Source of the DNA: Paraescarpia echinospica
Taxonomy: Eukaryota; Annelida; Polychaeta; Sabellida; Siboglinidae
Assembly (NCBI GenBank): GCA_020002185.1
Contig: CM034532.1
Location: forward strand, 51,878,702-51,942,701
Reading direction: 5' to 3'
Length of the DNA stretch: 64,000 nucleotides
The stretch's first letter is position 1; each line of letters opens with the position of its first letter. The notes beneath the pieces are model-generated. The model was not told the origin of the DNA and did not search any database. It was given only the letters and a program-made list of their open reading frames with translations. A program made the translations under genes and the position numbers. Of this stretch, positions 16,546-51,100 are shown in pieces.

Positions 16546-16725
16546 TGTTATAATCGGACTTTCTGTAGTCGTTACATCGGGTATAATCTATTCTGTGTAT
16601 ACGGCGCGCTGTTGCGCGCTTTGTGTGTGTAGTTGGTTTCCGCCGCAGGCGTGGTTCTTCGTTCATAATAAAAGGTTATAATACTTACTACTCTCTAGTT
16701 ATACATTAATAGTCAAGTTACGACA
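16546..16725 (+). repeat. Gypsy 5' LTR
   Basis: 180 bp, TG...CA ends. It contains AATAAA at 16667-16672, a likely poly(A) signal. It carries a 10-bp segment (near CGCGCTGTTGCGCGC) absent from the 3' LTR. Confidence 0.95.
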
Positions 16726-16727
16726 GC

Positions 16728-16740
16728 TGGTGACGAGGAT
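16728..16740 (+). promoter_or_regulatory. candidate tRNA primer-binding site
   Basis: TGGTGACGAGGAT begins two bases after the 5' LTR, the expected place for a PBS, and starts with TGG, the complement of a tRNA CCA end. I could not assign the tRNA. Confidence 0.55.
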
Positions 16741-16741
16741 A

Positions 16742-17455
16742 ATGGCAGGCTACATCGGTCAGCTAGGAGAGTTCAATGAGGCTAAAGAGGACTTTGAGAG
16801 TTACGTAGAGAGGCTGGATCAGTGGTCTGAATTGAACGGAATCGATTCGACGAAGAAAGCAAACGTGCTTCTTTCTGTGATCGGGCCTACGTCATATAAA
16901 CTACTCAAAGATATCCTGACGCCGGAGAAACCGAAGGATAAGTCCTACGTTGAACTATGTGATGCCTTAAAGGGGCATTATTCGCCAAACCCTCTGGTTA
17001 TTGCTGAGAGATTCCGATTTTACAAGAGAGGACAGAAGGAGGGAGAGTCGGTGGCAGACTACGTGATCACCTTGAAGCAGCGGAGTGGTACGTGCGGGTT
17101 TGGAGAGTTCCTACCGCACGCCCTGAGAGACCGTCTGGTGTGTGGTCTTCGGGATGAGAACATTCAGAGGCGATTGCTAACCACCAAAGAGCTCACCTTC
17201 CAATCAGCAAAAGAAGTAGCGATTGCAATGGAGCTGGCGACCAGAAGTGAGGTCTGTCTACGGGCCACTGGTGAATCCGTAAATAAAGTCACTTACTCGC
17301 TGCGTCAAAGAAGTGGTCGTGCTGCACGCAAGCCTGAGAAGTCGAGACGGAATGAGTGTTATCGATGTGGCGAGGACCATAATCCTGAAAGATGTCACTT
17401 CAGGACGGCAGTGTGTTATGTCTGTAACAAAGTGGGACATTTGGCACGCAAATGA
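16742..17455 (+). CDS. gag: Gypsy Gag (capsid/nucleocapsid)
   Basis: Encodes a retrotransposon Gag that would assemble cytoplasmic particles and bind element RNA. The ATG at 16742 is the first after the primer-binding site. Residues about 1-150 look like the Gag capsid-type domain (FESYVERLDQW near the start, then a 'GLRDENIQRRLL' segment typical of Mag-like elements). The C-terminus is basic and has two zinc knuckles, CYRCGEDHNPERC and CYVCNKVGHLARK followed by TGA. The TGA occupies exactly the place of the last zinc-binding Cys of knuckle two. The reading frame continues without shift into protease, so Gag and Pol share a frame and are separated only by this TGA. It may be a point mutation of a Cys codon, or less likely a recoding stop. 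Confidence 0.88.
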   Translation: MAGYIGQLGEFNEAKEDFESYVERLDQWSELNGIDSTKKANVLLSVIGPTSYKLLKDILTPEKPKDKSYVELCDALKGHYSPNPLVIAERFRFYKRGQKEGESVADYVITLKQRSGTCGFGEFLPHALRDRLVCGLRDENIQRRLLTTKELTFQSAKEVAIAMELATRSEVCLRATGESVNKVTYSLRQRSGRAARKPEKSRRNECYRCGEDHNPERCHFRTAVCYVCNKVGHLARK

Positions 17456-18757
17456 AGAGGAAATAACCGCAGAAACACGTCTCAGAGTCAGATGACCAAG
17501 AGTCAATCCCAGAATGTTCGCTACGTCGGTGTGGTCGCTGATGAGTCGGACATTGGAATCTACACGTGTAACGTTGGAGGGGCCGGGGCGCAGCCAATCT
17601 TCGCTGAAGTGGATATTGGAGGCAACGCCGTGAGAATGCAGGTGGACACAGATGCAGCTAAGTCGCTCATTCCAGAGACACTGTACTTGAGACATTTTGC
17701 ACATCTCGCTCTACAACCCACCAACCTCACTCTACGCACCTATACTCAAGAGGTCATCGAGCACATCGGAGTGGTCACTCTGGGTGTGAGGCATGGAGAC
17801 CAACGAGCTGAGTTATCCGCAGTGGTCGTCAAGGGCGACAAAACACCTCTACTAGGAAGAGACTGGCTGGCAAAATTGAAGTTAGACTGGTCGAGTATCC
17901 TGGCAGTCACCGCAATTGCAAGGCATTCGGTGGAGGAAGTGCTGAAAGGGCATTCAGAGGTATTCCAAGAAGGAACGGGCACAATAAAGGGCTACACAGC
18001 GCACATCTACATGAAGGAAGACGTGCAGCCTCGCTTTCATAAGGCTAGGCCGGTGCCCTACGCACTGCGAGATAAAGTTGAACACGAACTGGACCGGTTG
18101 GAGAAGGAGCGCATCATCCAGAAGGTGGACCACAGCGATTGGTCGGCTCCGATTGTGGTAGTGCCGAAGGCGAACAAGACGGTGAGGATCTGTGGTGACT
18201 TCAAAGTCACGATCAATCCGAATGCGGAACGTGAGCACTACCCACTTCCAAACGTGGAGGATCTCTTCGCGTCACTAGCCGGTGGCAAGGTGTTCAGCAA
18301 GCTGGACCTATCCCATGCGTACCAACAACTCGAGTTGGACGCCGAGTCGCAACACTACGTCACAGTGAATACCCACAAGGGCACGTATCGCTACCTGCGT
18401 ATGCCGTACGGTGTGAGCAGCGCACCGAGTATCTTCCAGTCGGTGATGGATCAGATCCTGCAGGGCATGGATCATGTGATGTGCTTCCTAGACGACATCC
18501 TCATCACGGCTGAGTCGGAGCAGGAACATCTGAAACTTCTAGACGAAGTACTCACTCGTCTGGAGAAGTGTGGCGTCCGAGTGAATCTGGCGAAATGTGA
18601 GTTTGCCAAGAAATCAGTTGACTACTTGGGTCATCTGATAGATGCGGAAGGCATCCATCCCACATCTGAGAAATGTGTACGCAATCACCAATTATCAGAA
18701 GCCGAAGGACGTGAAGGAGTTGCGTTCGTACTTGGGGTTGATCAACTACTACGCTAA
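17456..18757 (+). pseudogene. pol: Gypsy Pol, part 1: protease and reverse transcriptase (ends at frameshift)
   Basis: Same frame as gag, downstream of its TGA. An aspartic protease domain is centred on 'VDTDAAKSLI' (17642-17671), where the usual D-T/S-G triad reads D-T-D. The Gly to Asp change at 17651-17653 should harm proteolysis. 'LLGRDWL' follows at about 17850, the second conserved protease segment. RT follows, with 'RICGDFKVTINP', 'FSKLDLSHAYQQ', 'RMPYGVSSAPSIFQ' and the catalytic 'FLDDIL' (GACGAC at 18491-18496). After 'YLGHLIDAEG' the frame is lost near 18672 (one extra base fits) and the out-of-frame tail stops at 18757. Confidence 0.9.
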
Positions 18758-20681
18758 GTTTATACCCCGCATGTCTACCGTGTTACGTCCACTACACCTA
18801 CTGCTCATGAAGGATCGTGAGTGGAGATGGACTCCCGAGTGTGATGACGCAATGCAGAAGTGCACAGATCTGCTGACGTCACAGCAGGTGCTGGTGCACT
18901 ACGACTGTCGTAAGCCACTGCGACTGGCTACGGATGCGTCTCCGACAGGCGTCGGGGCCGTGCTGTCACATGTCATGGAAAACGGAGATGAGAAGCCGAT
19001 AGCGTTCGCGTCACGGACCCTTTCGTCGAGTGAGTGCAACTACGCACAGATCGAGAAGGAGGCGTTATCGATCATCTTTGGAGTCAAGAAGTTCCATAAG
19101 TATCTCTATGGACGCTCTTTCACATTTATCACGGATCATAAGCCGTTGGTCACAATCTTCGGTCCCAAAACGGCTGTGCCAACGTTGGCAGCGTTACGAA
19201 TGCAGCGTTGGGCACTCATCCTGCAAGCGTACCACTACGGTATCGAGTACCGTAAGTCCGAGGATCACGCCAACGCTGACGCATTGTCGAGACTACCTCT
19301 ACCGACTACAACGACAGAGGAGCCGGCAATATTCGAAGTATCAGTGATTGACGATCTCCCGGTCAAGGCCAGGGACATCGCCGTGGAAACCCGCAGCGAT
19401 CCTTTGTTATCACGAGTACTCGAGTATGTACTCACAGGTTGGCCCAACCACACAGACAAGGAACTACAAGTGTTCTTCGCGAAGCGAGACGAGCTGTCAA
19501 CTGAACAGGGTTGTCTGCTGTGGGGATCACGCTTTCTGGTTCCGTCAGCCTATCACCAGGCGATGCTAGATGAGCTCCACTCGGAGCATAGTGGAGTCAA
19601 CCAGACCAAAGCATTCGCGCGCAGCTACATATGGTGGCCAGGTATGGACAATGATATCGAGACGATGGTGCAGGCTTGTGCAGTGTGTCAGTCAGTGAAG
19701 AATCAGCCAGCCGTAGCACCACTGCATCCATGGCCTTGGCCCACACGCATATGGCAGAGAATTCACATTGACTTTGCTGAGAAGGACGGTGTGAACTATC
19801 TGATTGTGGTTGACAGCCATTCGAAATGGTTGGAAGCTGTGGCGATGAGGTCCACTACATCCGCTAAGACCATTGAGGTACTCAGAGGAATGTTCGCATC
19901 TCATGGTCTACCGGAGAAGGTCGTGTCAGATAACGGGCCTCAATTTATCGCACACGAGTTCAAGACGTTCATGGACAAGAACGGCATCAAGCATACGAGG
20001 GTGGCTCCATACCATCCAGCGTCGAACGGTGCTGCTGAACGCTGTGTGCAGACTGTGAAGCAGAGTCTTCGGAAGTACTCTGTTGGAACTCAACTGACGA
20101 AGGAGAGTTGGCTCGCTAATTTCCTCCTGCGTTATCGGTGCACTCCGCATACCGTGACCGGTGTGTCTCCTGCGGAACTCTTCCTCAAGCGTCGACTGAG
20201 GAATCGCTTCAGTCTTCTCAAACCGCACATGGAGGAGAAACAGACGCAACAAAAAGAGCAACACGATCGGAGTAGAGTGAAGCTTCGAGAGCTGGTCAGC
20301 GGTGATCCAGTACACGTTCGCAATCATTGTGGCAGCGGTCCTCCGAAATGGGTCGCGGGCAAGATCATCAGACGACTGGGTCCGCTCACCTACTTAGTGC
20401 AAGTACGTGCACAGCGTCGCTATGTGCACGTAGACCATCTACGGCTGACGGCTGAAGGTGAGGTGACTGTACCTATGGTTCCGGAGATTCCAGAGTTGGT
20501 GTGTGTTACCCTTCCTTCTTCTTCTACGGAGCCGTGTGTTCAAGCAGAGTCACTTCCGTCTGAGGCAGATGAAACTGTTCGAGCACCAAGTGATGTGACT
20601 GTGGTTCCTGATGAATCATCGTCTCCTGTGCTACGCCGATCAAACCGGTGTGTCAAACAACGGAAAATACTGGACCTTTAA
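18670..20681 (+). pseudogene. pol: Gypsy Pol, part 2: RT thumb, RNase H and integrase
   Basis: Continues Pol in the +1 frame after the break. It has the RT connection 'KELRSYLGLINYYAKFIP' and RNase H with catalytic D/E/D landmarks ('LATDASPTG' at about 18924, 'IEKEALSI', 'TDHKPL'). Integrase follows with an HHCC zinc domain ('ELHSEHSG' and 'CAVC') and a DDE core ('IHIDF', 'SDNGPQF', 'NGAAERC'). After it comes a 'GPLTYLV' segment of the GPY/F type and an acidic, Ser/Thr-rich tail with no chromodomain. The stop is TAA at 20679-20681. All visible catalytic residues of this half are intact. It has no start of its own and depends on fusion to part 1. Confidence 0.9.
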
Positions 20682-29904: not shown

Positions 29905-30136
29905 TCACTGACAGGACTGGTCAGTCACACTTAGTGTTGCAGTGCCGTAGTTTGACATGACGCATTTGAACCACCAGATTTCCGTGGAAACAGAAACTGC
30001 AAAGTTGACTCGTTCACCTGGGGAGCCTTTCAAAGTGACACGTATGTCACTGGAACTGACAGTGATGTCACTGACTCGCTGGGGGGAGATTGGCACTAGT
30101 TTTGACACCTCCCCTAGGAGGGAAACGTTCCACGAC
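29905..30136 (-). CDS. hydrolase-like gene, terminal exon p
   Basis: 232 bp including the TGA at 29905-29907. Acceptor CTTCTGTTGCAG|GTCG. Encodes 'SWNVSLLGEVSKLVPISPQR', 'VSDITVSSSDIRVTLKGSPG' and a final 'SVTDQSCQ'. The LLGE.SK.VP.S segment and short Ig-like beta strands form the C-terminal domain. Confidence 0.85.
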
Positions 30137-33100
30137 CTGCAACAGAAGAGTTATTTTTACAAGACATGACAGATACCTGACCTGTCTACACACATGACTA
30201 TATCTACAAGACATGACAGATACCTGACATGTCTACACACGATTATATCTACAAGACATGACAGATACCTGACCTGTCTATACACATGACTATATTTACA
30301 AGACATGACAGATACCTGACCTGTCTACAAACATGACTATATCTACAAGACATGACAGATACCTGACCTGTCTACATACATGATTATATCTACAAGACAT
30401 GACATATACCTGACATGACTACACACATGATTATATCTACAAGACATGACAGATACCTGACCTGTCTATACACATGACTATATTTACAAGACATGACAGG
30501 TACCTGACCTGTCTACACACATGATTATATCTACAAGACATGACAGATATCTGACCTGTCTATACACATGACTATATCTACAAGACATGACAGATACCTG
30601 ACCTGTCTATACACATGACTATATGTACAAGACATGACAGATACCTGACCTGTCTACACACATGACTATATCTACAAGACATCATCCTCACAAGCCAGGG
30701 GTTTGACTACATACACTAGCCCTGGCAGATCTCCTACACATTGTACGCAAGTTAGTTGAATCAAACTCATAATTGATTTCTCTGTACCACCCGTGAGAAC
30801 AGTGCAGACACTCATCCGACTCACGTCCCAGTTCAGGAATCCCAATATAATTACCCATTTGACCATTCTCACGAGCCGCCGAGCGGTATTGCATATTCAA
30901 ATAATTATGTCTTCTGCCCAAACAGTCCATGAAGACCACTCAGAAGACTACCAGAATTTGCCGGCAAGCAATATCATTGGCTGAGCTTATATTCTGAGTT
31001 TCAGCAAGCGATCTGCCAGGGGAGACTGAGACTGATGTAATCAGTAGCAACACCTGGCACGCGAAGATGCAAAACATGACATATATCTGACCAGTCTACA
31101 CATACACACGATTATTTCTACAAAACATGACATACCTGACTATTCTACACACGATTACTTCTACAAGACATTACATATACCTGACTTGTCTAAATATGTG
31201 ATTATTTCTACAAAACATGACCTGTAGTGATATACTTGGCCTGGTTTGATAGCTTCATACATGATTATGATACAAGATGAGAATGTGAGTAACATGAACC
31301 TCCAGTTGTAAACAGGAGCCGTGTAGTGAAGACAGAAGTCTGTGTAGGAGCAGCCATGGAGCAGGAGCTTCTGCTTCTCACTGAATCTTGCTATAGACAT
31401 CTCGTTGTTGTACACCACACTCGTACCAAACTGAAAGTAACAACATCATCTACACAGCAAGTCCTACCTACAGCTGTATGCATCACAACGTTGCAGCAGA
31501 AAGTATTTTATTAGTCATTCTGTGCATACATGCTTTAAAATACAAAACACATAAATACATTATTGTATACATTGACTATTCAAGAGAGTTATTTATAAGA
31601 GACTAATAAGATAAACATTAAAACGGAAAAGTACAAATAATAACAGTAACGTTTATCAAATATTTACATCATTATACAGATAAACTGCACAACCGCGGGC
31701 TGCTTACACCTACACAACTTAAATGTTATCCAAATACCTGTTCACTTTGACAGACATTTACTGGTATGCTTTATTTTATGTAGAAAACAATGATATACCA
31801 CAACTGTACACAAATAAAACAAAAACTAGTATTATGCTCATGCATAAATTTGTATTCATTTAGATACTTTATTTTATCAGATAACCTTTATAGAAGTTTA
31901 GGAATATGGAACGTGGCAAACTAGGTATCCAAATCCAGCGTCGTCTGGGCCAATGTAGTAGTCATGACTCAGCTCAAATGAAAAGATGATGCCAAAGCGC
32001 CACCTTCCGATGTCTGAGTAGGTGGTCCATACTTCTCCTGTAGGACCAACACTGCCACCAAACGCCTCCTGAAAGATCACATCAAACATGTACATCTTTA
32101 TCTTCCTCTCTACGTCACTGTCTCTGCATGGTTCTGTCTTTGTGTGTCAGTCTGTCAATGCCATTTAGTTTGCATGCATGTGTGCATATGTGTGAGTGTA
32201 CGTGTATATCTGTGATTGTGTGTGTCTGTCTGTGTCCTTGTGTCTATTCAGTCTTCCTTTCCCTGTCTGCCTGTTCCAGCCTCCACCTATTCGGTGTTCC
32301 TTTCCCTATCTGCCTGTTCTAACCTCCAACTATTCTGTCTTCCTTTCCCTATCTCCATGTTCCCGCCTTCACCTATTCTGTCTTTCTTTCCCTATCTCCC
32401 TGTTCCCGCCTCCACCTATTCTGTCTTTCTTTCCCTATCTCCCTGTTCCAGCCTCCACCTATTATGTCTTCCTTTCCCTCCCTGTTCCAACCTCCACCTA
32501 TTCTGTCTTCCTTTCCCTATATCTTTGTTAAGTCTACCTATTCTGTCTTCCTTTCCCTATCTCCCTGTTCCAACATCCACCTATTCTGTCTTCCTTTCCC
32601 TATCTGCCTGTTCTAACCTCCACCTATTCTGTCTTTCGTTCCCTATCTCCCTGTTCCAGCCTCCACCTATACTGTCTTCCATTCCCTATCTCCCTGTTCC
32701 AGCCTCCACCTATTCTGTTTCTGTTTTCCTTTCCTTATCTCCCTGTTCCAGCCTCCACCTATCTCCCTGTTCCAGCCTCTGCCTAATGTGTCTGCCTTTC
32801 CCCATCTCTTTTTTCAGTCTACCTATTCTGTCTTCCTTTCCATATCTGCCTTTTCCAACCTCCACCTATTATGTCTTCCTTTTCCCTATTTACTTGTTCC
32901 AGCCTCCACCTATTCTCTCTTCCTTTCCCTATCTCCCTGTTCCAGCCGCCACCTATTATGTCTTCCTTTCCCTATCTCCCTGTTCCAACATCCACCTATT
33001 CTGTCTTCCTTTTCTTATCTGCCTGTTTCAACCTCCATCTATTATGTTTTCCTTTCCATATCTGCCTGTTCCAACCTCCACCTATTCTGTCTTCCTTTCC

Positions 33101-36100
33101 CTATCTGCCTGTTCCAACCTTCACCTATTCTGTCTTCCTTTCCTGATCTCCCTGTTCCAACATCAACCTATCCCATTCTCTCTTCTTTTCCCTATCTCTG
33201 TTCAACCTCCACCTATTCTGTCGTCTTCCTTTTCATATCTCTTTGTTCAGTCTACCTATTCTGTCTTCCTTTCCCTATCTCCCTGTTCCAACATCCACCT
33301 ATTCTGTCTTCCTTTTCCTATCTGCCTGTTTCAACCTCCATCTATTATGTTTTCCTTTCCATATCTGCCTGTTCCAACCTCCACCTATTCTGTCTTCCTT
33401 TCCCTATCTGCCTGTTCCAACCTCCACCTATTCTGTCTTCCTTTTCCTATCTGCCTGTTCAACCTCCACCTATTCTGTCTTCCTTTCCATATCTCTTTGT
33501 TCAGTCTACCTATTCTGTCTTCCTTTCCCTATCTACCTGTTCCAACCTCCACCTATTCTGTCTGGTGGAGGTTAGAACTGGCAACTCAGATCACTCTATG
33601 CTGCAGTTGCTTCCCTTGTATCAACAAAAACTAATGGGATGCCGAATCTGTAGACATGTTGAAAGCCTGTATGGACTGGATGGACTAGCATGTTTTTCTA
33701 GATTCAAGTGCAGTACAGAGAGTTCCTTCATATTCCTAACTAGGCATCAAAATCTCCAACCAGCTCGAGTGGACTCTCAACACCAAGCGCAGCCAGAACA
33801 AGTGCTGCCAAAGGAACTATTTTGTGAGGAAGCTAAGAAAATTCAATGTGTGTAGGACAATTAGTCATCTGTTCTACCAGTGCATTGTCCAGTCAGTCCT
33901 GTGCTACTGTTTAGTTTGCTGGGGTGGAAGTGCTGCTCAATCGCGTTATCAGGTCAGCCAGTAGACTATTGGGGTGACGCTACCAACTGTGGATGAACTG
34001 TATGAAACATGTGACTAAGAAGACAGCAGAAATAATAAAAGACCCATCCCACCCACTGCACGAGTTCCATTATGTTGCTCAATCTGGCTCTATTGGAAAG
34101 GGCACGAACCAACCGGTATCGAAACACCTTCCTGCCAACCTCCATCCAACTGCTGAATGCGAGGTCTAGGAGAGGGAGGTGAACGGGGATGGTGGAGCGA
34201 TTTCAATGATTACAATGGTGGAAACTTGGATTCAGAAGTTCGCGTTGTCCGGTCAGTCAGTAAAACCATTGGGTGACACTACCAAGTATGGATGAACTCT
34301 ATGAAGCATCTGTGATGACAAACTTATATTATGATTTAGTAACAACGTGATAGTAATGTCATGATTGGCCAATAAGTACATCACTAAACTTAATCAGCTT
34401 TAAATGTACTAATATTTTTGAGTTAAAGTGTGAGTTTTTACCACATGAATTTCCATTTGTGGACAAATAAAGGTTATTGTATTGTATTGTATCTGCTTCA
34501 TCTCCCTGTACCTGTAGAATCTGCTTGTCAATGGGCATCGCAGGCTTTGATGGTTTCAATAACCGTCCATCTGCAGTGATCAGTCTGGAAAAATTAAACT
34601 AAAATATGAACGAACACATTTGAAATAAAGAATTATATAATTACTGATTTTTAATCTAACCAAAATTCTCACTACGAAACAATGGTTTCATCAGAATTGA
34701 ACATTTCGTCTAACAAAGGTAACTACAGCAACACGTTAAATGATTTCTGTTAATACCTTGCATCAATGTTGGCAATGACACAGAGAAACACATCTGAACA
34801 ATGTTTTTCATCTTACATAACTGCAATGGTGGCTGTTGGCTGGTATGAGAACCCCAGTTGTCCAGTGTATACCTGCCAACTATACTGGAATTTCTGGGAG
34901 TTTCCTTGATTTTGGGTGTACCTCCCGGTCTCCCAGGCAAATTTCCTGGACTTTCGCTTCAAATCTCCAATAGCACCCCCACCATCACTGTGTTTGACAC
35001 AGCGCGACATGACGGAACATGTGGTGAACTGCTGAATTTCTGGTGAAAAATCTCCAACAGCACCCCCCCATCTTCCGATGTCAAGATCCATGACAGCGTG
35101 AAGAAACAGCGCTATACGGGAAGCAAGCTGAACCGCTTATCAATCTCCAAGATTTCCAAAAAAATGTTGGCCAGTATATGATTCCATCAGTGAAATAAGA
35201 AAGGAGGCATAAGTGTAACAGATTACTCGAGCCTCTGAGGATACTAGAGACTGACCGGTGGATGAGTGAGACATTGCTGAGACCGATGCGGTCACCCACT
35301 CCGACTGGACCGGTGCTCAGTAGGGTGATCACAGCCTGCACCTGGGGGTTCAACTCTGTCGAATCTACAAGCAACAACATGTCACGTCGACACATTGTCT
35401 GCAGTTAATTATCCTAACACCGATATTTGTTACCTTGTTCAGACACCGATGTGTGTCATCCTATGCTAGCATGTCAGCTTATCATGGTACTAATGTTTGT
35501 CAGCCTATCCAGACACTTGAGTCTGTCAGCCTATCTGGACACGTGTGTCTGTCAGCCTATCTGGACACCTGTGTCTGTCAGCCTATCTGGACACTTGTGT
35601 CTGTCAGCCTATCTGGACACTTGTGTCTGTCAGCCTATCTGGACACGTGTGTCTGTCAGCCTATCTGGACACGTGTGTCTGTCAGCCTATCTGGACACTT
35701 GTGTCTGTCAGCCTATCTGGACACTTGTGTCTGTCAGCCTATCTGGACACCTGTGTCTGTCAGCCTATCTGGACACCTGTGTCTGTCAGCCTATCTGGAC
35801 ACTTGTGTCTGTCAGCCTATCTGGACACGTGTGTCTGTCAGCCTATCTGGACACCTGTGTCTGTCAGCCTATCTGGACACTTGTGTCTGTCAGCCTATCT
35901 GGACACCTGTGTCTGTCAGCCTGACACTTGCTGGTATGGTGCATCATATGAACCTGCATGTGTATGTGTGTGCATGCATGCATGCATATATGTGTAGTTG
36001 TAGGTAAAGTGTTTCACTCACTTCCAGGGTTGCCCGGCTGTTTGCCGGTCGTCCAGAAGTTGTCTTTGAATGGAGCCAACCCCAGAGCATCGGCAAACAT

Positions 36101-39100
36101 GGATGTGTGTCCAATCTTGTACTGCTGGTGGCTGGACAGGTAGTCACCACTCACACGCACCTACAACACACCTGACAGGTGAACAGGTAGTCGCCACTCA
36201 CATGCACCTACAACACACCTGACAGGTGAACAGGTAGTCACCACTCACACGCACCTACAACAAACCTGACAGGTGAACAGGCAGTCATCACTCACACGCA
36301 CCTACAACACACCTGACAGGTGAACAGGTAGTCACCATTCACACACACCTACAACACATCTGATAGGAGAATAGGTAGTCACCACTCACACGCACCTACA
36401 ACACACCTGACAGGTGAACAGGTAGTCACCATTCACATGCACCTACAACACATCTGATAGGAGAACAGGTAGTAACCACTCACACGTGCCTACAACACAC
36501 CTGACAGGGAAACAGGTAGTCACCAGTCACACGCACCTACAACACACCTGACAGAAGAACAGGTAATCACCACTCACCCACACCTACAACCAGACTTACC
36601 TGGGAGACTGCAGGAACTTGTAAACTGGCCAGCAGGTGTCGAGGGAGGGCCATGCAGTACTGTAGCTGTATGCCATAGCGGGAGGCAGCTTCCCCCATCT
36701 GCTGCAGCCACTGATTCCCCATTGACAGGTCTGTGTAGAGGGGGCGGATCTTCTCAGACTGGTAGTTGAGGAAGTCCTGTTAACACAAACTTTGATTGCT
36801 GTAGCTATCTGACATCGCATGGCTGTCAAGTTTAATATCACTTAGAAAATGGAAGGCTATGTTTAAAGATGATAAACAAATGTAGCAGAGAAACTATTCT
36901 AACTGTGAAATACTAAAACCTTTACATATATACCTTGTGAAGTGTAAAGCACTTTGAGCAGTCCTAAGGACTGGATACTGCACTACGTAAGGACTTACCT
37001 TTACTTTTCTCCTTTAATGTAGACACTATTCTAAATCCGATGACTATCTAGAGCATTTTACATAATATCACATGGACTGTGATATGCTAGAAAATATCCA
37101 ATTACACCTTCAACATTTTACAGTTTTTCACAACAGAGCTGGGGTGTAGAGAAACACTGACCTGCTCATAGACAACCATGCCCCACTGGAGAGCTGAGGA
37201 GAACAGGTAGTCCCAGAAACTCTGAAACAAACACCTCACTGTGACACACAAACACCTCATTGCGAAACACAAACACCTCACTGTGATGCACAAACACCTC
37301 ACTGTAAGACACAAACACCTCACTGTGGTACACAAACACCTCACTGCGAAACACAAACACCTCACTGTGAAACACAAACACCTCACTGTGAAACACAAAC
37401 ACCTCAATGTGACATACAAACACCTCACTGCAACACATAAACACCTCACTGTGACACACAAACACCTCACCATGAAACACAAACACCTCACTGCAACACA
37501 CAAACACCTCACTGCGACATACAAACACTTCACTGCAAAACACAAACACTTAACTGTGACACACAAACACCTCACTGTGAAACACAAACACCTCACTGTG
37601 ACATACAAACACTTCACTGCAACACACAAACACTTAACTGTGACACACAAACACCTCACTGTGATACACAAACACCTCATTGTGAAACATAAACACCTCA
37701 CTGCGAAACACAAACACCTCACCACGACACACAATCACCTCACTGCGACACACAAACCACAAACACCTCACTGCGACACACAAACACCTCACTGCGACAC
37801 ACAAACACCTCACTGCACAAACACCATCAGTGGGTGTTGTCTTACTTGGTCATTGGGAATGGAGTTTCCGCCGTCCATCAGGAATGTAAACTTGCCACCA
37901 TTCTCCTTGGCATAAACAACTTGATGAGACCTGTCAACACATTTCGTTCAACAATACATCTGGATTCTAATGAAATGTGAGGTGTCTTTAAATGCAATGG
38001 GTGAAATTTTATATTCTGTTGCCAAATTGTAGTTCTGTTTAATCTGCAAAAAGGGACCATTTCTCATTTATAATGAGCGCATAAGGAAAATTAATCATTA
38101 AATAGAATTCATTATTAAAATTAAGGAGCTCTTTCAAAATGCAAAAAGCCACCGCCACCGAGGTCAATTACGTGACAGTTTATAGTATACAAGATGTACA
38201 ATCATTGTTAATTATAAAGAGCAAAATTCATTGTAAAGAGAAAAATCGGGTGTACGAGCTCATGAGAATGATAGTGAAATAGTTGCTTGGGATCTTACTG
38301 TCCGGTATCAATGTGATACATTTATCAACTGACCAGTATCTGCTGTGGGCAACCACTGGCAACTGTGTCCGGTTGTAGATGTACCTAAAAATGACCAACA
38401 CACAAATGGTCAAACCAACCCGCAAACAGACATTATCAACTCGCTTCTAGAAACACAATAACACAGATTGGAAACAGTACACAAGACATAGCATTACCAT
38501 TCAGCTAGAATATCTAAGCAGTTTCGACAACATATACCGGTAAGTATGTCTATTTTTGTCTACTGCTATTAATGTTTGACTAAGTTATAGGTGGGACATT
38601 TTCAAATGATTCATATTTTTAAAGATTTCAGGAGATATGTTGCAAATGTTTCAATGCAAATTAATTATACGTATGACAGTAAGTGGTTAGTTAGTTCTCA
38701 TGGTTATTTCATGAAGAAAAAGTAGTTATTTCAAAAAGAAAAAGTAGTTATTTCAAAAAGAAAAAAGTAGTTGGATGTATAAATTGGTGCACTGTGCCAA
38801 ATACATCTGATGGCTTTCATCACACATGAAAGCAAGTATCATCTCACCAAGATAATCAATAGGACATACTCAGACAAGGAGCATGACAACGTCTAGGTCT
38901 ACACATAATACAAGCAGATACTGAGTTCTCATGCATTATATATTACTTCATTATGTGAACAGGCACAAAAGCAGCCACTCAAAGACAATTTAATACTGAC
39001 ACTGTACATTATTCATGCGTTCTGAGACAGCACCAAGACTCCAGGACCTGCCAGTTACAGACAAACCTCATCAGCCACAGCCACATTCGGCCAGTACCAC

Positions 39101-42100
39101 ATCATTATGTAGCCATAACCAGGTGTAGCCACAAATACTTTTAATGCCACAAACACCAACCACATATAGCCACAACCACATATAGCCACAACCACATATA
39201 GCCACAACCACATATAGCCACAACCACATATAGCCACAACCACATATAGCCACAACCACATATAGCCACAACCACATATAGCTGCTACCACATACAACCA
39301 CAAGCACATATAGCCACAACCACATATAGCTGTTACCACATACAACCACAAGCACATATAGCCACAACCACATATAGCTGTTACCACATACAACCACAAG
39401 CACACATAGCCACAACCACATATATCTGCTACCACATACAACCACAAGCACATATAGCCACAACCACATATAGCTGTTACCACATACAACCACAAGCACA
39501 TATAGCCACAACCACATATAGCTGTTACCACATACAACCACAACCACATATAGCCACAACCACATATAGCTGCTACCACATACAACCACAAGCACATATA
39601 GCCACAAGCACATATAGCTGTTACCACATACAACCACAAGCACATATAGCCACAAGCACATATAGCTGTTACCACATACAACCACAACCACATATAGCCA
39701 CAACCACATATAGCTGCTACCACATACAACCACAAGCACATATAGCCACAACCACATATAGCTGCTACCACATACAACCACAAGCACATATAGCCGCTAC
39801 CACATACAACCACAAGCACATATAGCCACAACCACATATAGCTGCTACCACATACAACCACAAGCACATATAGCCACAAGCACATATAGCCACAAGCACA
39901 TATAGCTGCTACCACATACAACCACAAGCACATATAGCCACAACCACATATAGCTGCTACCACATACAACCACAACCACATATAGCTGCTACCACATACA
40001 ACCACAAGCACATATAGCCACAACCACATATAGCTGCTACCACACACAACCACAAGCACATATAGCCACAACCACATATAGCTGCTACCACATACAACCA
40101 CAAGCACATATAGCCACAACCACATATAGCTGCTACCACATACAACCACAAGCACATATAGCCACAACCACATATAGCTGCTACCACATACAACCACAAG
40201 CACATATAGCCACAACCACTTACACCCACAACCACATATAGCTGCTACCACATACAACCACAAATATACCTGTATGATATGGTATTTGATGACCAACAAT
40301 TGTGGACAAACAGCCTAGCCAGAGAGGTCAGAAGGGGACAAAGTTCGACAAACACACCTCAGATCACGACACTGCCACTTACCTCAGTCCATGTGGGAAC
40401 ACGGATGGCATAGGTTCCCAGGCTATAGTAGCACCATAGCCAACACCATCCTCATAATACCACCAGTCATCATACTGGAGATATCTACAAGTACAACATC
40501 ACTAGTAGCACTGTTGTCAACATTAAACAAGATTTAACAACATTGCCACCCAAGGCTACAAGCTCCAGATGGCTTGCACACAAGAAAGCCTTTGGCTTAT
40601 CATAGTCCAACAATTTTCCACCTACCGGTATGTATAACCCTCATCCGATAATTGTCAATTTTATTTTTGAACATATTCACACTGCTAGCATTAACACAAT
40701 CATTAGATAATTTGTTCTGGTCATTATTGTCCTCTGTGACAATGCAAACTTTCTCATATCCAAAATACACTGTTCCCTAACTAATGCTGTATTGTGCCCT
40801 CTGGTTCTACTGCCTTCTTGATGTTTGAAGAAAATATTTCTATTAGTATCTTCATAACCATCCAATATTTTTAAAATGTCTATTTGGTCTTAAATAGAAT
40901 ACTGTCAATGTAATATCATCAATCATAATACTGGAGATATCTACAAAGATTACAAATACACCATCACCAGTACCCATGTAATCAATACAGTCAATGTAAT
41001 ACCATTGGTCAACATAATACAGATATCCATAAGTACACTAGGAGCAGTGTAGCTGTCAGCTGCAATTAGTATCATATCAGTAAAATGTAGGTAACATAGA
41101 TTTCTGACATAGAATATGATTTGACAAGTACTACATTGAACATTGACGTTGTATGCATCATACATGATACCCGTCCCAGGCAGTCAGGTAACTGTCAGTG
41201 ACAAGCTTTGCTTTCTACAGCAAACATCTTGTTATAAATCTCCTCTGACGTTCCACAGTGTCATCTAACTAAAGGTGGAACTGCACCTACTTGTAGGGTA
41301 TTCCAAACTCTGTGGCATACTTGTGCACGCCAAGTAACGTCTCTTCATAGTTCATACCAGGCTCGGTATGGTGATAATAGTAGCTACCTACCAACAGTAA
41401 ACAGTTCATACCAGGCTCGGTATGGTGATAATAGTAGCTACCTACCAACAGTAAACAGTTCATGCCAGGCTCGGTATGGTGATAATAGTAGCTACCTGCT
41501 AAAAGTAAACAGTTCATACCAGGCTCGGTATGGTGATAATAGTAGCTACCTACCAACAGTAAACAGTTCATGCCAGGCTCGGTATGGTGATAATAGTAGC
41601 TACCTGCTAAAAGTAAACAGTTCATACCAGGCTCGGTATGGTGATAATAGTAGCTACCTACCAACAGTAAACAGTTCATGCCAGGCTCGGTATGGTGATA
41701 ATAGTAGCTACCTGCTAAAAGTAAACAGTTCATACCAGGCTCGGTATGGTGATAATAGTAGCTACCTACCAACAGTAAACAGTTCATACCAGGCTCGGTA
41801 TGATGATAATAGTAGCTACCTACCAATAGAAACTGTTCATACCAGGCCCAGTATAATAAAAATAGACACTAACCCACCTGCCCCTCCATTAATCAGACCA
41901 TATTAGTCAATAATTTGACAAATTATCTTTCAGAGCCATGTTCCCACAGTTAGACCTGTTTATAAACAACATCGTCACTGACACTGTAACAGACAGTATG
42001 TCAACAATAGTGTTACTGACAGTGTCACAGGACTCTCTGTCAACAATATTTGTCAACAACTGTGTCACCAATGCTGTCAATGTTGTGTCACTGTCAGCAG

Positions 42101-45100
42101 TGCTCACCGTGGTCTGTGTAGTAGCCTATGTAGTTGACACTGAGGTCTTGGTCCCTGGCCGCTGTATCACGTCTGTTCCACTTCCGCATCAGTTGACCCC
42201 ATGCTGACATTGCCTACAAGAACCACAATGGGTCATTAAAGCGAGTTCATTAGTTGACCCCATGCTGACATCGCCTGCAAGAACCACAGTGGTCATTCCA
42301 ATGAGTTCATTAGTTGACCCCATGCTGACATCACCTGCAAGAACCACGGTGGGTCATTAAAGTGAGTTCATTAGTTGACCCCATGCTGACATTGCCTGCA
42401 AGAACCACGGTGGGTCATTAAAGCGAGTTCATTAGTTGACCCCATGCTGACATTGCCTACAAGAACCACAATGGGTCAATAAAGCGAGTTCATTAGTTGA
42501 CCCCATGCTGACATTGCCTGCAAGAACCATGGTGGGTCATTAAAGCGAGTTCATTAGTTGACCCCATGCTGACATCGCCTGCAAGAACCACAGTGGTCAT
42601 TCCAATGAGTTCATTAGTTGACCCCATGCTGACATCACCTGCAAGAACCATCGTGGTTGTTGCAGTGAGTTCGTTAGTTGACCCCATGCTGATATCGCCT
42701 GCAAGAACTACAGTGGTCATTATAGTGAATTCATTAGTGGACCCCATGCTGATGTCGCCTGCAAGAACTAGTGGTCGTTACAGTGAATTCATTAGTTGAC
42801 CCCATGCTGACATCGCCTGCAAGAACCACAGTGGTCATTACAGTGAGTTCATTAGTTGACCCCATGCTAACATCGCCTGCAAGAACCACAGTGGTCAATG
42901 CAGTGAGCTCATTAGTTGACCCCATGCTGACATTGCCTGCTAGATCCACAGTGGTCGTTACAGTGAGTTCAACATCAGGACACTTAACAAATGAAATAGT
43001 TAAACAGCGATCTCATTGTGCTTTTGAGACAAGACACAAACCTCAAAATGGGCCACTGAGGTATCAAGACTGACAGGATCAACTGGCTGTGACAGGGCTG
43101 TGACCGTCTACCTTCTAGTATCAACTAGCTTACACCCATCAATGTAAAGCCAGAGTGGCGCCCTCTGGACAGTGCCTCACCACATGGTTCGACCAGTAAC
43201 AAGAGTGAGCATTAAGCACAAAAGTCAATAACTTTAAATAAGTACATTTGTGTTTTTAAATGTAAATCAGAGGCCAATGGTGAAAGGAAGTGGATGAACA
43301 TAGCCAGAGCCAAATGAATGTCAGCCCACAGGAGGATGTACTGTTAGACTGCCCTAAGGTTAGCATATTATTATTAACGTATAAAAGCAAACTAAAATGA
43401 TGAAGACTTACCTGATTGATTCCCATGTCGCTGTACATTAGTATCGTGTCATACTGGAAGCCTGCTGGGATCTCCTGGACGTCTCCCATGATGCCCCAGG
43501 AGACCGCCTTATCCTTCTTGTTGAACCACAGAGAAGCGGCCATGAACTGACTGAAGGCTGATATGATGATGACGTTACCAGTTTTGTCAAAGAGCAGCAG
43601 AGGTCCTGACAACATGCCATCAGCCAGCACCATGCCCGCACTCCACCTGCAATACAGAAGTCCCAGGGACCATTTCACTAAGATAATGAGATCATAACTT
43701 CCAAAATTCATCATTAAACATAATCCTTTGTTACATTAGAGGGGCATTTTCGAAAAGCAGAACGCCACCGCTGTATCACTGAAGAAACCATTTGTGTGAC
43801 ACACTGGTGATTCGCTGCAAAAGTGTTCACAGTTGTGTCCAGGCCCCCTGTGTTGACAGTTTTCAGTATACAAGATCACTGTTAAAGGAAATAAAAATAA
43901 GGCATTAGCAAAAATCCTTTTTCCATGTGTACACAAAGTGTTGACAGTTTTCAGTATACAAGATCACTGTTAAAGGAAATAAAAATAAGGCATTAGCAAA
44001 AATCCTTTTTCCATGTGTACACAAAGTGTTGACAGTTTTCAGTATACAAGATCACTGTTAAAGGAAATAAAAATAAGGCATTAGCAAAAATCCTTTTTCC
44101 ATGTGTACACAAAGTGTTGACAGTTTTCAGTATACAAGATCACTGTTAAAGGAAATAAAAATAAGGCATTAGCAAAAATCCTTTTTCCATGTGTACACAA
44201 AGTGTTGACAGTTTTCAGTATACAAGATCACTGTTAAAGGAAATAAAAATAAGGCATTAGCAAAAATCATTTTTCCATGTGTACACAAAGTGTTGACAGT
44301 TTTCAGTATACAAGATCACTGTTAAAGGAAATAAAAATAAGGCATTAGCAAAAATCCTTTTTCCATGTGTACACAAAGTGTTGACAGTTTTCAGTATACA
44401 AGATCACTGTTAAAGGAAATAAAAATAAGGCATTAGCAAAAATCCTTTTTCCATGTGTACACAAAGTGTTGACAGTTTTCAGTATACAAGATCACTGTTA
44501 AAGGAAATAAAAATAAGGCATTAGCAAAAATCCTTTTTCCATGTGTACACAAAGTGTTGACAGTTTTCAGTATACAAGATCACTGTTAAAGGAAATAAAA
44601 ATAAGGCATTAGCAAAAATCCTTTTTCCATGTGTACACAAAGTGTTGACAGTTTTCAGTATACAAGATCACTGTTAAAGGAAATAAAAATAAGGCATTAG
44701 CAAAAATCCTTTTTCCATGTGTACACAAAGTGTTGACAGTTTTCAGTATACAAGATCACTGTTAAAGGAAATAAAAAAAGGTGTACACAAAGTGTTGACA
44801 GTTTTCAGTATACAAGATCACTGTTAAAGGCATTAGCAAAAATCCTTTTTCCATGTGTACACAAAGTGTTGACAGTTTTCAGTATACAAGATCACTGTTA
44901 AAGGAAATAAAAATAAGGCATTAGCAAAAATCCTTTTTCCATGTGTACACAAAGTGTTGACAGTTTTCAGTATACAAGATCACTGTTAAAGGAAATAAAA
45001 ATAAGGCATTAGCAAAAATCCTTTTTCCATGTGTACACAAAGTGTTGACAGTTTTCAGTATACAAGATCACTGTTAAAGGAAATAAAAATAAGGCATTAG

Positions 45101-48100
45101 CAAAAATCCTTTTTCCATGTGTACACAAAGTGTTGACAGTTTTCAGTATACAAGATCACTGTTAAAGGAAATAAAAATAAGGCATTAGCAAAAATCCTTT
45201 TTCCATGTGTACACAAAGTGTTGACAGTTTTCAGTATACAAGATCACTGTTAAAGGAAATAAAAATAAGGCATTAGCAAAAATCCTTTTTCCATGTGTAC
45301 ACAAAGTGTTGACAGTTTTCAGTATACAAGATCACTGTTAAAGGAAATAAAAATAAGGCATTAGCAAAAATCCTTTTTCCATGTGTACACAAAGTGTTGA
45401 CAGTTTTCAGTATACAAGATCACTGTTAAAGGAAATAAAAATAAGGCATTAGCAAAAATCCTTTTTCCATGTGTACACAAAGTGTTGACAGTTTTCAGTA
45501 TACAAGATCACTGTTAAAGGAAATAAAAATAAGGCATTAGCAAAAATCCTTTTTCCATGTGTACACAAAGTGTTGACAGTTTTCAGTATACAAGATCACT
45601 GTTAAAGGAAATAAAAATAAGGCATTAGCAAAAATCCTTTTTCCATGTGTACACAAAGTGTTGACAGTTTTCAGTATACAAGATCACTGTTAAAGGAAAT
45701 AAAAATAAGGCATTAGCAAAAATCCTTTTTCCATGTGTACACAAAGTGTTGACAGTTTTCAGTATACAAGATCACTGTTAAAGGAAATAAAAATAAGGCA
45801 TTAGCAAAAATCCTTTTTCCATGTGTACACAAAGTGTTGACAGTTTTCAGTATACAAGATCACTGTTAAAGGAAATAAAAATAAGGCATTAGCAAAAATC
45901 CTTTTTCCATGTGTACACAAAGTTTAACATTGTACGTAACATTTGACAACATTAAACAAATACAGAAAAATACATTTGTAGCATAAATTCGATTTTAAGC
46001 CCGTCTGTGAAGTGATTCCCGCGGAAATTAAATTTTAATGAGCTAGGCAATCACGTGGTATCGTGACGTCACTTATGACCCACACTCGCATCAGGCCGAC
46101 CTTTTCCATGCATTCAGAGCATGTTTACAAGGATAGCTTTTGGGTCGAAACGAGCGTCAGAATGAGTTATTGTGCAATATTCCGACGTAATCAAATTTTA
46201 TTCAAAACAACGAATGCGAATGGGCCTACAAGTCAACTAAGTTTCGCCGAGCTTGGGCTCGTTTTCAGAATAATTATATCGAATGCAACCAACAGGAGAT
46301 AATCTACACCAATAAACATACATAGCAAACAGATATTGTATCCAGCTAATTATTTATTCACCACAAAATGAAAATATGGTCATTATATATAACGATGTTT
46401 CTAAATTTTATTTATCCAGACAGATCACAATCTGTTTTCACATATATAATTACAATATATTACTGTACAATATATTTACAATTAATAAATTATATATCCA
46501 TTACATTATATTTGTTTGGATAAATACAATTTAGAAACATCGTTATATAATGACCATATTTTCATTTTTGTGGCGAATAAATAAGTACTACAAAAATAAA
46601 AATTATTTACAAACAGTGCATTATAGTATAAAATGATTTGGTTTATATTACTTCGTGAAAACATAAAAAAGTATAAAGAAAATCAATGGTTTGCATGCTG
46701 TCAGGATTGAACCTGCGTCGCCCGATTGTAAAATAAATGACAAGAAACCAACGCGCCTACCCACTGAGCTAGCGGCACCAGCGGAAACTCTCTGACTGAT
46801 TTAAATTGTTATGATAAATTGTACAACTCCTTCATATATCGATACTCTAGTGATATTATGAGATTATACACATTATTTTCTGTAGATGAATACAATATCT
46901 GTTTGCTATATATGTTTATTGGTGTAGATTATCTCCCGTTGGTTGCATTCGATGTAATTATTCTGAAAACGAGCACAAGCTCGGCGAAACCTAGTCGACT
47001 TGTAGGCCCATTCGCATTCGTTGTTTTGAATAAAATTTGATTCACGTGGAACCATAAGATAACTGCTTGTTCCTCTATGATAACTAGTGTTTGTATTACG
47101 TCGGAATATTGTACAATAACTCATTCTGACGCTCGTTTCGACCCAAAAGCTATACTTGTAAACATGCTCTGAATGCATGGAAAGGGTCGGCCTGATGCGA
47201 GTTTGAGTCATAAGTGACGTCACATCTCGGCATCCCGAAAAGCGCGCCAAAAATATGCATATTCGAAAATGTCCGGATGCACAGCATAAAATGTGGAATT
47301 TCTAATTCATTGAATTTTTTTGATTTTTTTTGGCTTGGTGGACGTGGAAATAGATAGCAGGATGTAATATAACATGAATTCAAGCAATAGGTGTTTTTAT
47401 TCCCTTTAAGGAACAACATTTATAATAAATAGCAAAATTAAGCTTATGAGCGGATAAGAATGTTAGTGAAGCTGTCCCCTGGAGAGTTAACCTATCCACC
47501 AGGTCTGATTTCAAGGTAATCCCCAAAAGGACATCTTTTTATTAAAAAGCAATCTATTTATCAACAAGACATTAAAAAATCACATACACATATATGCAAA
47601 AAAGTGGCTGGAACATGTCACTTGTGGAAACAGAATCCACAACATACAGGTCAGATCCCCCATTCCTTCAAAAGCAATAGATACTTTTGAAAGACTCCCA
47701 AACCCTACGTAAGCACAGAGAGAGAGTTCTCTGAGTGTTACCAATGAAGTGCTTCATCTCTATGGTGCTATCACACAGGGCATGTGTTTGTGCCACAGTG
47801 CAGGCATTAACCCACCTGCCTGCATGAAGTCCCGACCAGCCAGAGAACACATCACCATAGGACAGGTAGCCAAGGTCAACACTGATGTTCTGGGTTTGTA
47901 AAGTGGGGAAGCCAGATACAACACCATTTTCTGAGCCAACCGATGTACCTGACAGACCTCCCTTGAAGTGCTGAAACATAAACACAAAAAAAGGAATTAA
48001 TACATGTATTGTGTGTGTGTGTGTGTGCGTGTGTGTGCATATGTAATATATGTAATGTATATGTATATTACTTATTACTCCAGACACAAACTGCATGATC

Positions 48101-51100
48101 AAAGAATGAACTACTTATACACAATTAACCATAAGAACGACGTTCAAATCATAATAACTGTCGCATATATTGAGATTAGTGAGAGATGTTTAATCCATGT
48201 TTTATACATAGGCTAAGGAACATGGAAAATCAGTCAAATCTTTATAGGCTTACTTTGCAATTCCTACACAATCACCCCAAATCTCGCGTAACCATACGAA
48301 AACATAACCATACGATGATTTCTGGCGGGGCAAGAAAACAATTGGACCACCCAATTATTACAGCATGCACTACAGAATGAGCCGATACACACAGGTGGAT
48401 CAGACAGGACATGCTGATAAGAACATTACTTTTCTTTCTTTACTATTGACGTTATTGCTTAGATATATGTTCGCAAAAAAACAAGATTGCCACCCAGAGA
48501 ATTAACTCTAGATGACAGGTGGACAAGGAAGCCCTTTGGCTTATCGAGAGTCCGACCCTTTCATCTATGTGTATCCCGCCATTCTGAGGTATGTGTCGAT
48601 TTTATTTTTAACCATATTCACGCTACTAGCACCCACACAATCAGCAGATAATCTGTTCCATTCATTTACCGTCCTTTGTGAAAATGAAAACTTTCTCATA
48701 TCTAATCTACACTGCTCCTTTACTAATGTAACTTCATGTCCTCTAGTCCTTCTATCTTTATTAACTGAGAAAAAAATATTTATATCAATATTTTCATAAC
48801 CATTTAATATTTAAAAAAACTTATATCTGATCTCCTCTCAATCTCCTCATCTCTAATGTTGTTAAACCCCATTTTTTAGGCATATTTCATATCTAAGATC
48901 CCTCAGTTTCCTTATATATGCTATATTTTGCCTAATTAATCCAAGGATTTTATTTCCCTTTGAAGCTGCAATTCCGCACTGCTCTGAAACCTTCATATCA
49001 GCACTAATAGTTAACCCTAAGTCTTTTTCTTTTATGGTAGTACTTAGTATGGTACCCCCATTGTATATTCTACATCTTTGTTTCCATGTCCTCTGTGGAG
49101 GCATTTACATTTCTCAAAATTGAACAACATTTGCCATTTTTCAGACCATTTGATCAACATGTCAAGAATCCTCACCAAAGATCATCTTGTAAATGCTGTC
49201 TATCTCCATCACTTTTAATCCTTCTAAACACTTTTGTATCATCTATAAATTTCAACATCTTGCTTGTTATATCATCATCCAAATCATTGATATATATTAA
49301 GAATAATATAGGTCCCAGTACTGATCCCTGTGGTACCCCACTCAAAACTGATTTCCAGTTTGAAGCCTCCCCATCAACTACTACCTGTTGTCTCCTGTCA
49401 ATCAACCATTTTTCTATCCAGTTAATTATACCATTTCCTATGCCATGGGCCTTTAATTTAAGCAGTAACCTTTGATGTGGCACTTTGTCGAATGCTTTCT
49501 GAAAATCTAAGTAGATGATATCTACTGGTGATCCATCATCTACCCACTTAGTGATATCTTCCAAAAAACATAACATATTTGTTAAGCATGACCTCGCTTT
49601 TAGAAATCCATGTTGAGATGGGTTTATCAAGTTATGTTTAACAAGAAAATCCACCATGTGATCTTTAGTTAGTCTTTCCAATAATTTGCAAATCACTGAT
49701 GTTAAACTCACTGGTCTATAGTTCTCTGACTTGTTTCTTAAACATTTTTTACACAACTGTATAATGTTTGCTATTTTCCATTCTAAAGGAACCACTCCCT
49801 CTTCTAATGTCAAATTGAAAACTGTTGCAAGGGTATGCTAATTTGTTCTACAATTTCTAACAGTAGTTTGGGCGGAATCCCATCCAATCCAGGTGATTTA
49901 TTATCCTTCATAGCCCTTATTTTCTTAGCTACCATTTCCGGGGTTACAATTAACTTCTAAATAGTCTGATTTTGCCCCCTTGAACTTAGCCTCTGGTACT
50001 GGCAGTGCATGAACTAATATGTTTCCTGGTAAACACCAAACTAAAATATTCATTAGGGTCTTCTGCCATTAATAATCCCTCTGATATTATATTTCTAGCA
50101 CTAAGATATGTGCCTTTGCATGGTTATTTTGGAATTATCACTTCCAACTTTGACCCACTGCTATTACCACATAAGTAGGATTTAAGGTGGCCAATTTCTT
50201 GGTAGGGTTCCCCAACATGTCTATTTTATTATAACAAAAGCTGGGAACAATGCAAGGAAGTCAGTGGTTTTACAAAGTGCTGCGCTTCTGTGAGAATCGA
50301 CCATATGATATATATATATAGCATATAGTATTCAATAATTATTAATATTATAAAACAGTTACATAATCATAATAAACAACTAAATCAAATGAATCAACAA
50401 GTTTTGTTCATGCAATGATCACCTCAATTCATCTGTCTCTGGACTGTAACGGTGTAACCACAAAATTAATTAGTTTTTATTAAATTTATAATAGTGATAA
50501 TTGCTTTTAAAATACATTTTTACAGGATCATTATTTTATGAAAAAAGTGTATGTGTTAATTAGGCTCACCATGCTTCTCCATTATGCAGTAACACAATCA
50601 TGTATTTAAATTAGAATCATTACTTGTATTTCCTTAATACCAACTTTAGTTCTCATAAACAACTATTTGTGCATGAAACAAAGCAAATAAGACATACCAC
50701 TGATACAATGTTGTTTTGTTAATTGGTGCACAGAAAAAGATTTTTATTTTGGTGTAGATTGAAACATTGAAGTGACTTATACAGTCTCATTAATTAACAC
50801 TTGCATGTTACCTGAGAGAAGATGGCCACAGGTAGATGGGTGTATGTCTTCACACACATGTCAACCTGACTACCTGTCACCGAGTAGGAGTAATTGAGCA
50901 TGCTCCATGACCCCAGCAGGTCAGATCCCTTGTTACTAATTGGCTTGCCAGTCAGTCGAAGCGTGCCATCGCCCGTTGAATGATGTTTGCCCCCAGCCTG
51001 CACAGTGGTGGCACCACTGTGCAGCCACACATCGCCACCAACCACAACTTTGTATGAACCATCTAGAGCAGTCTTCACAACAAATCCACCGTCTGACTTT

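What the first reader, a model, noticed from the sequence alone, without database searches (positions are those of the whole stretch)
36127..42975. Minisatellites that amplify splice acceptors together with the exon start in one gene
Exons d (42213), e (41387) and k (36160) of the hydrolase-like gene each begin inside a tandem array. The array unit contains the intron's 3' end, the AG, and about 25 bases of that exon. The three arrays are unrelated in sequence (60, 60 and 47 bp) but have the same architecture, so one mechanism acting repeatedly at acceptors in this gene is more likely than chance. Each intron ends in about 8-13 near-identical acceptors. I recall a related idea, minisatellites touching exon-intron junctions in amphioxus genes, but have not verified it and it may concern donors.
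Basis: partly seen in the sequence, partly recalled or inferred. Interest (0 to 1): 0.88.

Follow-up and report, generated by a model that had tools for sequence, protein, structure and literature searches.

The report
Tandem-repeated splice acceptors in worm gene
In one gene of what is probably an annelid worm, short repeats have copied the start of several exons together with the splice signal before them, an oddity previously described in lancelets, so each of these introns ends in a row of look-alike splice sites of which the last gives the normal protein.

Summary
Exons d, e and k of a minus-strand gene (16 exons mapped, a-p) each begin inside a tandem array whose unit carries intron 3' end, AG and 27, 39 and 25 nt of exon start. 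Periods are 60 (58-61), 54 (not 60) and 47 bp; counting the real junction there are 13, 9 and 10 copies. I add a decayed acceptor-f duplication (two degenerate upstream copies) and a 21-bp array reaching acceptor i without exon sequence. Of 15 acceptors tested, 5 show such repeats; of 15 donors, none independently. The named protein most alike is from the tubeworm Lamellibrachia satsuma (84% over 59%), so the window is probably annelid. The architecture is that of lancelet 'mirages' (PMC3087553, PMC3902484). All 12 and 9 upstream acceptors of d and k give premature stops; all 8 of e stay in frame, adding 18 aa each. Most likely these are junction-spanning minisatellites tolerated because the exon-proximal acceptor is used. 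An acceptor-specific mechanism is suggested, not shown (post hoc placement null p 0.0004-0.019; acceptor-over-donor excess not significant). There is no cDNA and no genome scan: the genome search tool did not complete.

The parts
42187..42971 (-). Array d: ~60-bp unit = ~33 nt intron end with AG + 27 nt of exon d; 12 upstream copies + real junction
42108..42213 (-). Exon d; first 27 nt lie in array d
   Evidence: (aligns to homologs)
41349..41854 (-). Array e: 54-bp unit = 15 nt intron end with AG + 39 nt of exon e; 8 upstream copies + real junction; open in frame throughout
41291..41387 (-). Exon e; first 39 nt lie in array e
36136..36590 (-). Array k: 47-bp unit = 22 nt (or 11 nt, see report) intron end with AG + 25 nt (possibly 36) of exon k; 9 upstream copies + real junction; fills intron j-k
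36022..36160 (-). Exon k; first 25 nt lie in array k
40911..41050 (-). Decayed copies of the acceptor f junction (exon-like start at about 40940, and a further one at about 41026 that lacks the AG)
   Evidence: 68-72% identity, BLAST E 2.4e-9 and 6.6e-6
40383..40484 (-). Exon f, whose acceptor region is the parent of the decayed duplication
37222..37815 (-). 21-bp array filling most of intron h-i up to acceptor i (TRF 37227-37815, a shortened last unit runs to the AG); no exon sequence in the unit
29905..51110 (-). Host gene, exons a-p (exon(s) upstream of a not sought), 731 aa; distant similarity to raffinose synthase/Sip1 far below Pfam's cut-off

Best explanation
These are junction-spanning minisatellites ('mirages') in an annelid gene. 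A segment covering the end of an intron and the start of the next exon was duplicated, probably by slippage or recombination between short similar sequences, and then expanded by unequal exchange. Copies upstream of the last one fall into the intron and are removed as long as splicing uses the exon-proximal (last) acceptor; the protein is then unchanged and the array is nearly neutral. Exchange between units includes the functional junction, so the real acceptor and exon start take part in the turnover. Shown here: the architecture, that at d and k only the last acceptor keeps the product open, unit variants shared with the real junction, and repeats of different divergence. Inferred: use of the last acceptor (by exon definition), the duplication mechanism, and near-neutrality.
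For: Units carry AG plus exon start in register. Only the last copy leads into the conserved coding sequence; 12 of 12 upstream acceptors at d give a stop after 36-99 nt and 9 of 9 at k after 54 nt. The real junction d matches unit 42456 over 22 nt upstream and 23 nt downstream, while the other 11 upstream units match only 2 nt upstream; the junctions of e and k share up to 37 and 32 nt upstream and up to 39 and 25 nt downstream with internal units. Units are unrelated between arrays, so this is not one mobile sequence. The duplication at f is 28-32% diverged, against mean pairwise differences of about 2-15% within d, e and k, so events look separate in time. Exon d at its break and the intron flank upstream of array d share CTGATG (sequence). 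Globin (RT-PCR), Adh3 and TnC mirages of lancelets are described as not disturbing the mRNA (passages).
Against: No cDNA was seen, so last-acceptor use is inferred. By a small acceptor matrix (13 acceptors of this gene) 38 of 112 AGs in the three array introns score at least as high as the used one, against 54 of 1027 in the 12 other introns (35 of these in intron b-c); local site strength alone would not pick the last copy. The shared CTGATG at d is short, and the outermost unit of e is too decayed to show breakpoints. Less variation in exonic than intronic parts of units (mean pairwise difference 0.068 against 0.155 at d, 0.019 against 0.154 at e, 0.121 against 0.151 at k) could point to some constraint rather than neutrality; the site counts support this only at e.
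Confidence: 0.8

Rival explanations
1. The arrays are functional alternative-acceptor cassettes. At e, upstream acceptors add 1 to 8 in-frame 18-aa repeats to the protein; at d and k, upstream acceptors trigger nonsense-mediated decay and tune expression.
For: 8 of 8 upstream acceptors at e keep an open frame to the normal stop; exonic parts of e vary at 2 of 39 sites against 6 of 15 intronic sites (Fisher p 0.004; 0.06 without the outermost unit) and all 4 codon differences are synonymous; at d 18 codon differences are synonymous and 7 not. Many upstream sites score above the used one.
Against: None of the 7 homologs that cover the start of exon e has an insertion there. A search with the array e frame found no database protein, but only 7999 candidates of limited length were scored, so a full-length protein with the repeats would have been missed. 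Numbers of variable sites do not differ between exonic and intronic parts at d (only the 16 intronic columns next to the junction used) and k (p 0.21 and 1.0), and k shows 11 nonsynonymous to 3 synonymous codon differences. An open 54-nt unit is not rare by chance (my estimate).
Confidence: 0.12
2. Chance placement (compatible with the best explanation): intronic minisatellites are very common in this gene and some simply happen to cross an exon edge; no acceptor preference exists.
For: 9 of 15 introns hold a larger array; the sign test of acceptors against donors is not significant; if junctions of both kinds count, the placement null reaches p 0.11 in its most permissive setting. The pattern was chosen after it was seen.
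Against: In 16 of 18 settings the either-junction p is below 0.07, and the acceptor-only p is 0.019 or less in all 18; the acceptor f duplication and array i are further cases not counted in that test.
Confidence: 0.35
3. Multiple acceptors act together (avidity) to rescue weak acceptors.
For: Used acceptors of d, e and k score low (5.5, 4.3, 2.6) against the gene's matrix.
Against: With leave-one-out scoring of the other 13 acceptors the three are not significantly weaker (Mann-Whitney p 0.18), nor poorer in pyrimidines (p 0.39).
Confidence: 0.04
4. Assembly artefact.
For: Tandem arrays are error-prone in assembly (general knowledge); raw reads were not available.
Against: Units within each array differ at many sites and carry structured variants (alternating e units, d unit groups), which a stutter error would not create; the f duplication is 28-32% diverged.
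Confidence: 0.03

Closest known systems
Lancelet (amphioxus) 'mirages' (globins BflGb6/BflGb9, Adh3, TnC, PGBD5)
   Same: Minisatellite-like tandem copies of an exon-intron boundary with splice signals in many units; [quoted passage not shown] unit sizes reported 10-160 bp (PMC3087553 passages; PMC3902484 passages).
   Different: Probably annelid, not lancelet. Three full arrays plus one decayed duplication in one gene, with no independent donor case. Here the copy at the real junction shares unit variants, whereas the BflGb6 paper reports cluster boundaries as excluded from homogenisation.
Human 6-16 (IFI6) minisatellite that supplies multiple splice donors (recalled, not seen: one search did not return the paper)
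   Same: Minisatellite at an exon-intron junction that multiplies splice signals.
   Different: Donors, not acceptors; from memory only.
Introners or other intron-generating mobile elements (recalled)
   Same: Repeated sequence carrying splice signals.
   Different: Units of d, e and k are unrelated and each derives from its own host exon; no shared mobile sequence among them.

Membership tests
Mirage (junction-spanning minisatellite) | Tandem units span an exon-intron boundary | tested here: met
   d, e, k: arrays overlap exons by 27, 39, 25 nt; f as a decayed duplication
Mirage (junction-spanning minisatellite) | Units carry copies of the splice signal | tested here: met
   AG in each listed unit of d (13), e (9), k (10)
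Mirage (junction-spanning minisatellite) | Normal mRNA despite the copies | not testable with these tools
   no cDNA; only the inferred open product
Mirage (junction-spanning minisatellite) | Copy-number polymorphism and somatic instability | not testable with these tools
   one haplotype only
Mirage (junction-spanning minisatellite) | NOT a defining feature, listed for completeness: the host group so far reported to me (lancelets) | tested here: not met
Minisatellite multiplying donors (6-16 type, recalled) | Array spans a donor with exon end | tested here: not met
   0 of 15 donors beat all 200 shuffles; donor j 1/200 through likeness to unit k
Intron-generating mobile element | Same sequence at several sites | tested here: not met
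   pairwise unit scores of d, e, k reached by 101-235 of 500 shuffles

The most novel reading that the evidence does not exclude
This annelid genome has an acceptor-biased generator of junction-spanning minisatellites that has acted at least four times on one gene over a long period, leaving both young arrays and a decayed one; the functional acceptor and exon start are themselves renewed by exchange with their intronic copies, and at exon e the in-frame array can add 18-aa repeats to the protein.
Probability: 0.15. Interest if true: 0.75.

Novelty: new member of a known kind. Interest (0 to 1): 0.5.

Why it matters
Mirages were described in lancelets and proposed there as a source of new introns. 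A probable annelid case with several repeats of different age in one gene suggests that the process is not peculiar to lancelets, gives a natural series for studying how the spliceosome picks one of about ten near-identical acceptors, and warns that gene predictors may fail at such sites. It remains one gene in one window.

Tried and rejected
Avidity for weak acceptors: rejected after leave-one-out scoring, although the first, resubstituted scores seemed to support it. Selection on exonic parts of units: site counts are significant only at e with the outermost unit included; mean pairwise differences are lower in the exonic part at all three arrays, or at two of three when the outermost unit is dropped (k: 0.109 exonic, 0.095 intronic), so I leave this open. 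Looking for proteins that include the array e repeat: none among the 7999 candidates scored. Looking for siboglinid proteins covering exons a-f: 2 hits, P0001 (unnamed) and a Candidula (snail) protein. A possible sixth case at acceptor p (1 of 200 shuffles, next to the 47-bp array) is left open: with 30 tests it is not significant. Exon g was first ended at the wrong donor and corrected. The 88-bp array in intron b-c has an acceptor-like AG in its units but no exon; it lies near a stretch found again in intron g-h, so I do not count it. The placement null used nine larger arrays; smaller TRF rows were left out.

Literature: 10 searches (one search was rejected for its wording). Searches returned nothing. 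Judged by titles and abstract starts in the listings, the only papers on this phenomenon were the lancelet papers PMC3087553 and PMC3902484; one search listed 25 of 311. I saw passages of both lancelet papers, not the whole texts. Of PMC9921365 (tubeworm genome) I saw passages only. Canestro 2002 and Zhuo 2007 are not held: known to me only through PMC3087553's text and reference list and recall. I do not claim that nothing is in print for annelids: one search was the only search naming them, one on tubeworm genomes.
Full report
What is there. The window holds an animal gene on the minus strand. I mapped exons a-p (51110 down to 29905); joined, they give a single open product of 731 aa from within exon a to the stop. 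At least one exon upstream of a is likely, as a begins behind an acceptor without a start, but was not sought. A search with the exon c-m product gave 143 proteins (120 listed). By identity the most similar named one is from the tubeworm Lamellibrachia satsuma (84% over 59% of the query). By E-value it comes second among named hits, after the mollusc Haliotis rubra (49% over 99%), and behind two unnamed entries (60% and 58%). Other named animals (several molluscs, Styela, Apostichopus, Glandiceps) lie at 43-52%. L. satsuma is an annelid of the family Siboglinidae. So the window is most likely annelid, probably siboglinid; this rests on one gene. The c-m product has no Pfam family at E 0.001; at E up to 1, 3 of 9 aligned members match raffinose synthase/Sip1 (best E 0.039), beside other families at chance level. 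Among solved structures a plant galactinol-sucrose galactosyltransferase appears at E 0.83, behind two chance-like hits to ribosomal protein S18. 'Hydrolase-like' is a fair but weak label.

The three arrays. Exon d begins at 42213, e at 41387, k at 36160. In each, the tandem unit holds the end of the intron, the AG and the first 27, 39 or 25 nt of the exon. Counting the real junction there are 13 copies at d (spacings 58-61), 9 at e (all 54) and 10 at k (all 47). The exon starts (AMSAWGQLMRKW, SYYYHHTEPGMNYEET, VRVSGDY) align to homologs, so the intronic copies derive from coding sequence and not the reverse.

Further cases. Testing 15 acceptors (b-p) and 15 donors (a-o) against the rest of their introns, acceptors d, e, f, i and k beat 200 of 200 shuffles; acceptor p is borderline (1/200 as high); no donor beats all, donor j (1/200) by likeness to the k unit and donor h (3/200). 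At f, two degenerate copies of the junction lie near 40940 and 41026, 68-72% identical to the real one; the one at 41026 lacks the AG (sequence). At i, a 21-bp array of about 28 units nearly fills the intron and reaches the AG but carries no exon. Controls: 0 of 73 interior exon windows and 0 of 420 mismatched pairs scored 16 or more, although one mismatched pair (exon i start against intron j-k) reached 15.

Is it acceptor-specific? Nine introns hold larger arrays. Placing one seed per array at random, three or more crossings of an acceptor by 15-25 nt of exon have p 0.0004-0.019, and of either junction 0.003-0.11, over 18 settings of exon tolerance, ancestral intron length and overlap. This was done after seeing the pattern and in one gene. 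In 7 of 9 array-bearing introns the array crosses the acceptor or lies nearer to it than to the donor (my reading of the distances; f-g and k-l are the exceptions), which is not significant. I take a bias as plausible and unproven.

What would splicing do? Using any of the 12 upstream acceptors of d gives a stop after 36-99 nt; any of the 9 of k gives one after 54 nt; any of the 8 of e keeps the frame and adds 18 aa per unit. The last acceptor is the only one that gives the conserved protein at d and k, and none of the 7 homologs covering the start of exon e has an insertion there. By a small matrix the used acceptors of the arrays are not the best in their introns: 38 of 112 AGs score as high or higher, against 54 of 1027 elsewhere (35 of these in intron b-c). 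Choice of the last acceptor, presumably by exon definition from the downstream donor, is therefore an inference.

Turnover. The real junction shares variants with particular internal units: at d with unit 42456 (22 nt upstream and 23 nt downstream identical; the other 11 upstream units only 2 nt upstream), at e and k with several. Exchange thus includes the functional junction. Numbers of variable sites do not differ between exonic and intronic parts at d (16 nearest intronic columns only) and k; at e the exonic part varies less, which rests on few sites. Mean pairwise differences, however, are lower in the exonic part at all three (0.068 against 0.155, 0.019 against 0.154, 0.121 against 0.151; k reverses without its outermost unit). 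The f duplication is 28-32% diverged, so the events look separate in time. At d the exon break and the upstream intron flank share CTGATG, which fits an origin at short similar sequences, but one such match is weak evidence.

A detail at k. The unit continues after the 25 matching nt with codons for FTCQ, where the Lamellibrachia protein has FTHQ and the window's own exon SSHQ. The unit may therefore hold 36 nt of an older exon k, keeping a state that the exon itself has lost. The Lamellibrachia protein also has an extra VR at this junction. Both are leads only.

Comparison. Lancelet mirages are the same kind of structure. [quoted passage not shown] BflGb9 duplicates the 3' boundary of an exon; Adh3, TnC and PGBD5 are further cases. 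Splicing is described as undisturbed for globins, Adh3 and TnC, and as probably so for PGBD5, whose protein is largely predicted (passages of PMC3087553, and PMC3902484). The structural features that I could test are met; normal mRNA and polymorphism could not be tested. I file this as a new member of that kind, in a probable annelid.

Verdict. Real, already described in kind, and notable for host group and for the number of cases in one gene.

Noticed in passing
43850-45923: 88-bp array of roughly 23 near-identical units (TRF rows) in intron b-c, with a pyrimidine-rich stretch ending in an acceptor-like AG in the unit, but no exon sequence; nearby sequence (about 43700-43770) recurs in intron g-h (about 38090-38155).
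   Followed up: partly
30158-30682 and 31103-31221: 47/43-bp arrays in intron o-p; the first ends 21 bases from acceptor p, which resembles its unit: a possible very diverged junction repeat (1 of 200 shuffles as high).
   Followed up: partly
36160 and P0004: Lamellibrachia satsuma protein has an extra VR at the start of exon k and FTHQ where the repeat unit reads FTCQ.
   Followed up: partly
P0004: The only siboglinid protein named in the listings begins near exon g and lacks the part from exons d-f; gene prediction may have failed at arrays there.
   Followed up: no
40680-40889 and 48568-48810: Reading frames alike to each other by eye that look like the end of a LINE-type reverse transcriptase (label recalled, no family search run); the first lies between the decayed f copies and exon f.
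   Followed up: no
16682-20678: Long plus-strand open frames of up to 679 aa that look like Gypsy-type retrotransposon gag/pol (label recalled, no family search run).
   Followed up: no
36136-36599: 7 of the 10 k copies (real exon included) have GTGAGT six bases after the AG, and 6 of 10 have CAG/GTGTGT before it, so array k also multiplies donor-like motifs (counted by eye).
   Followed up: no
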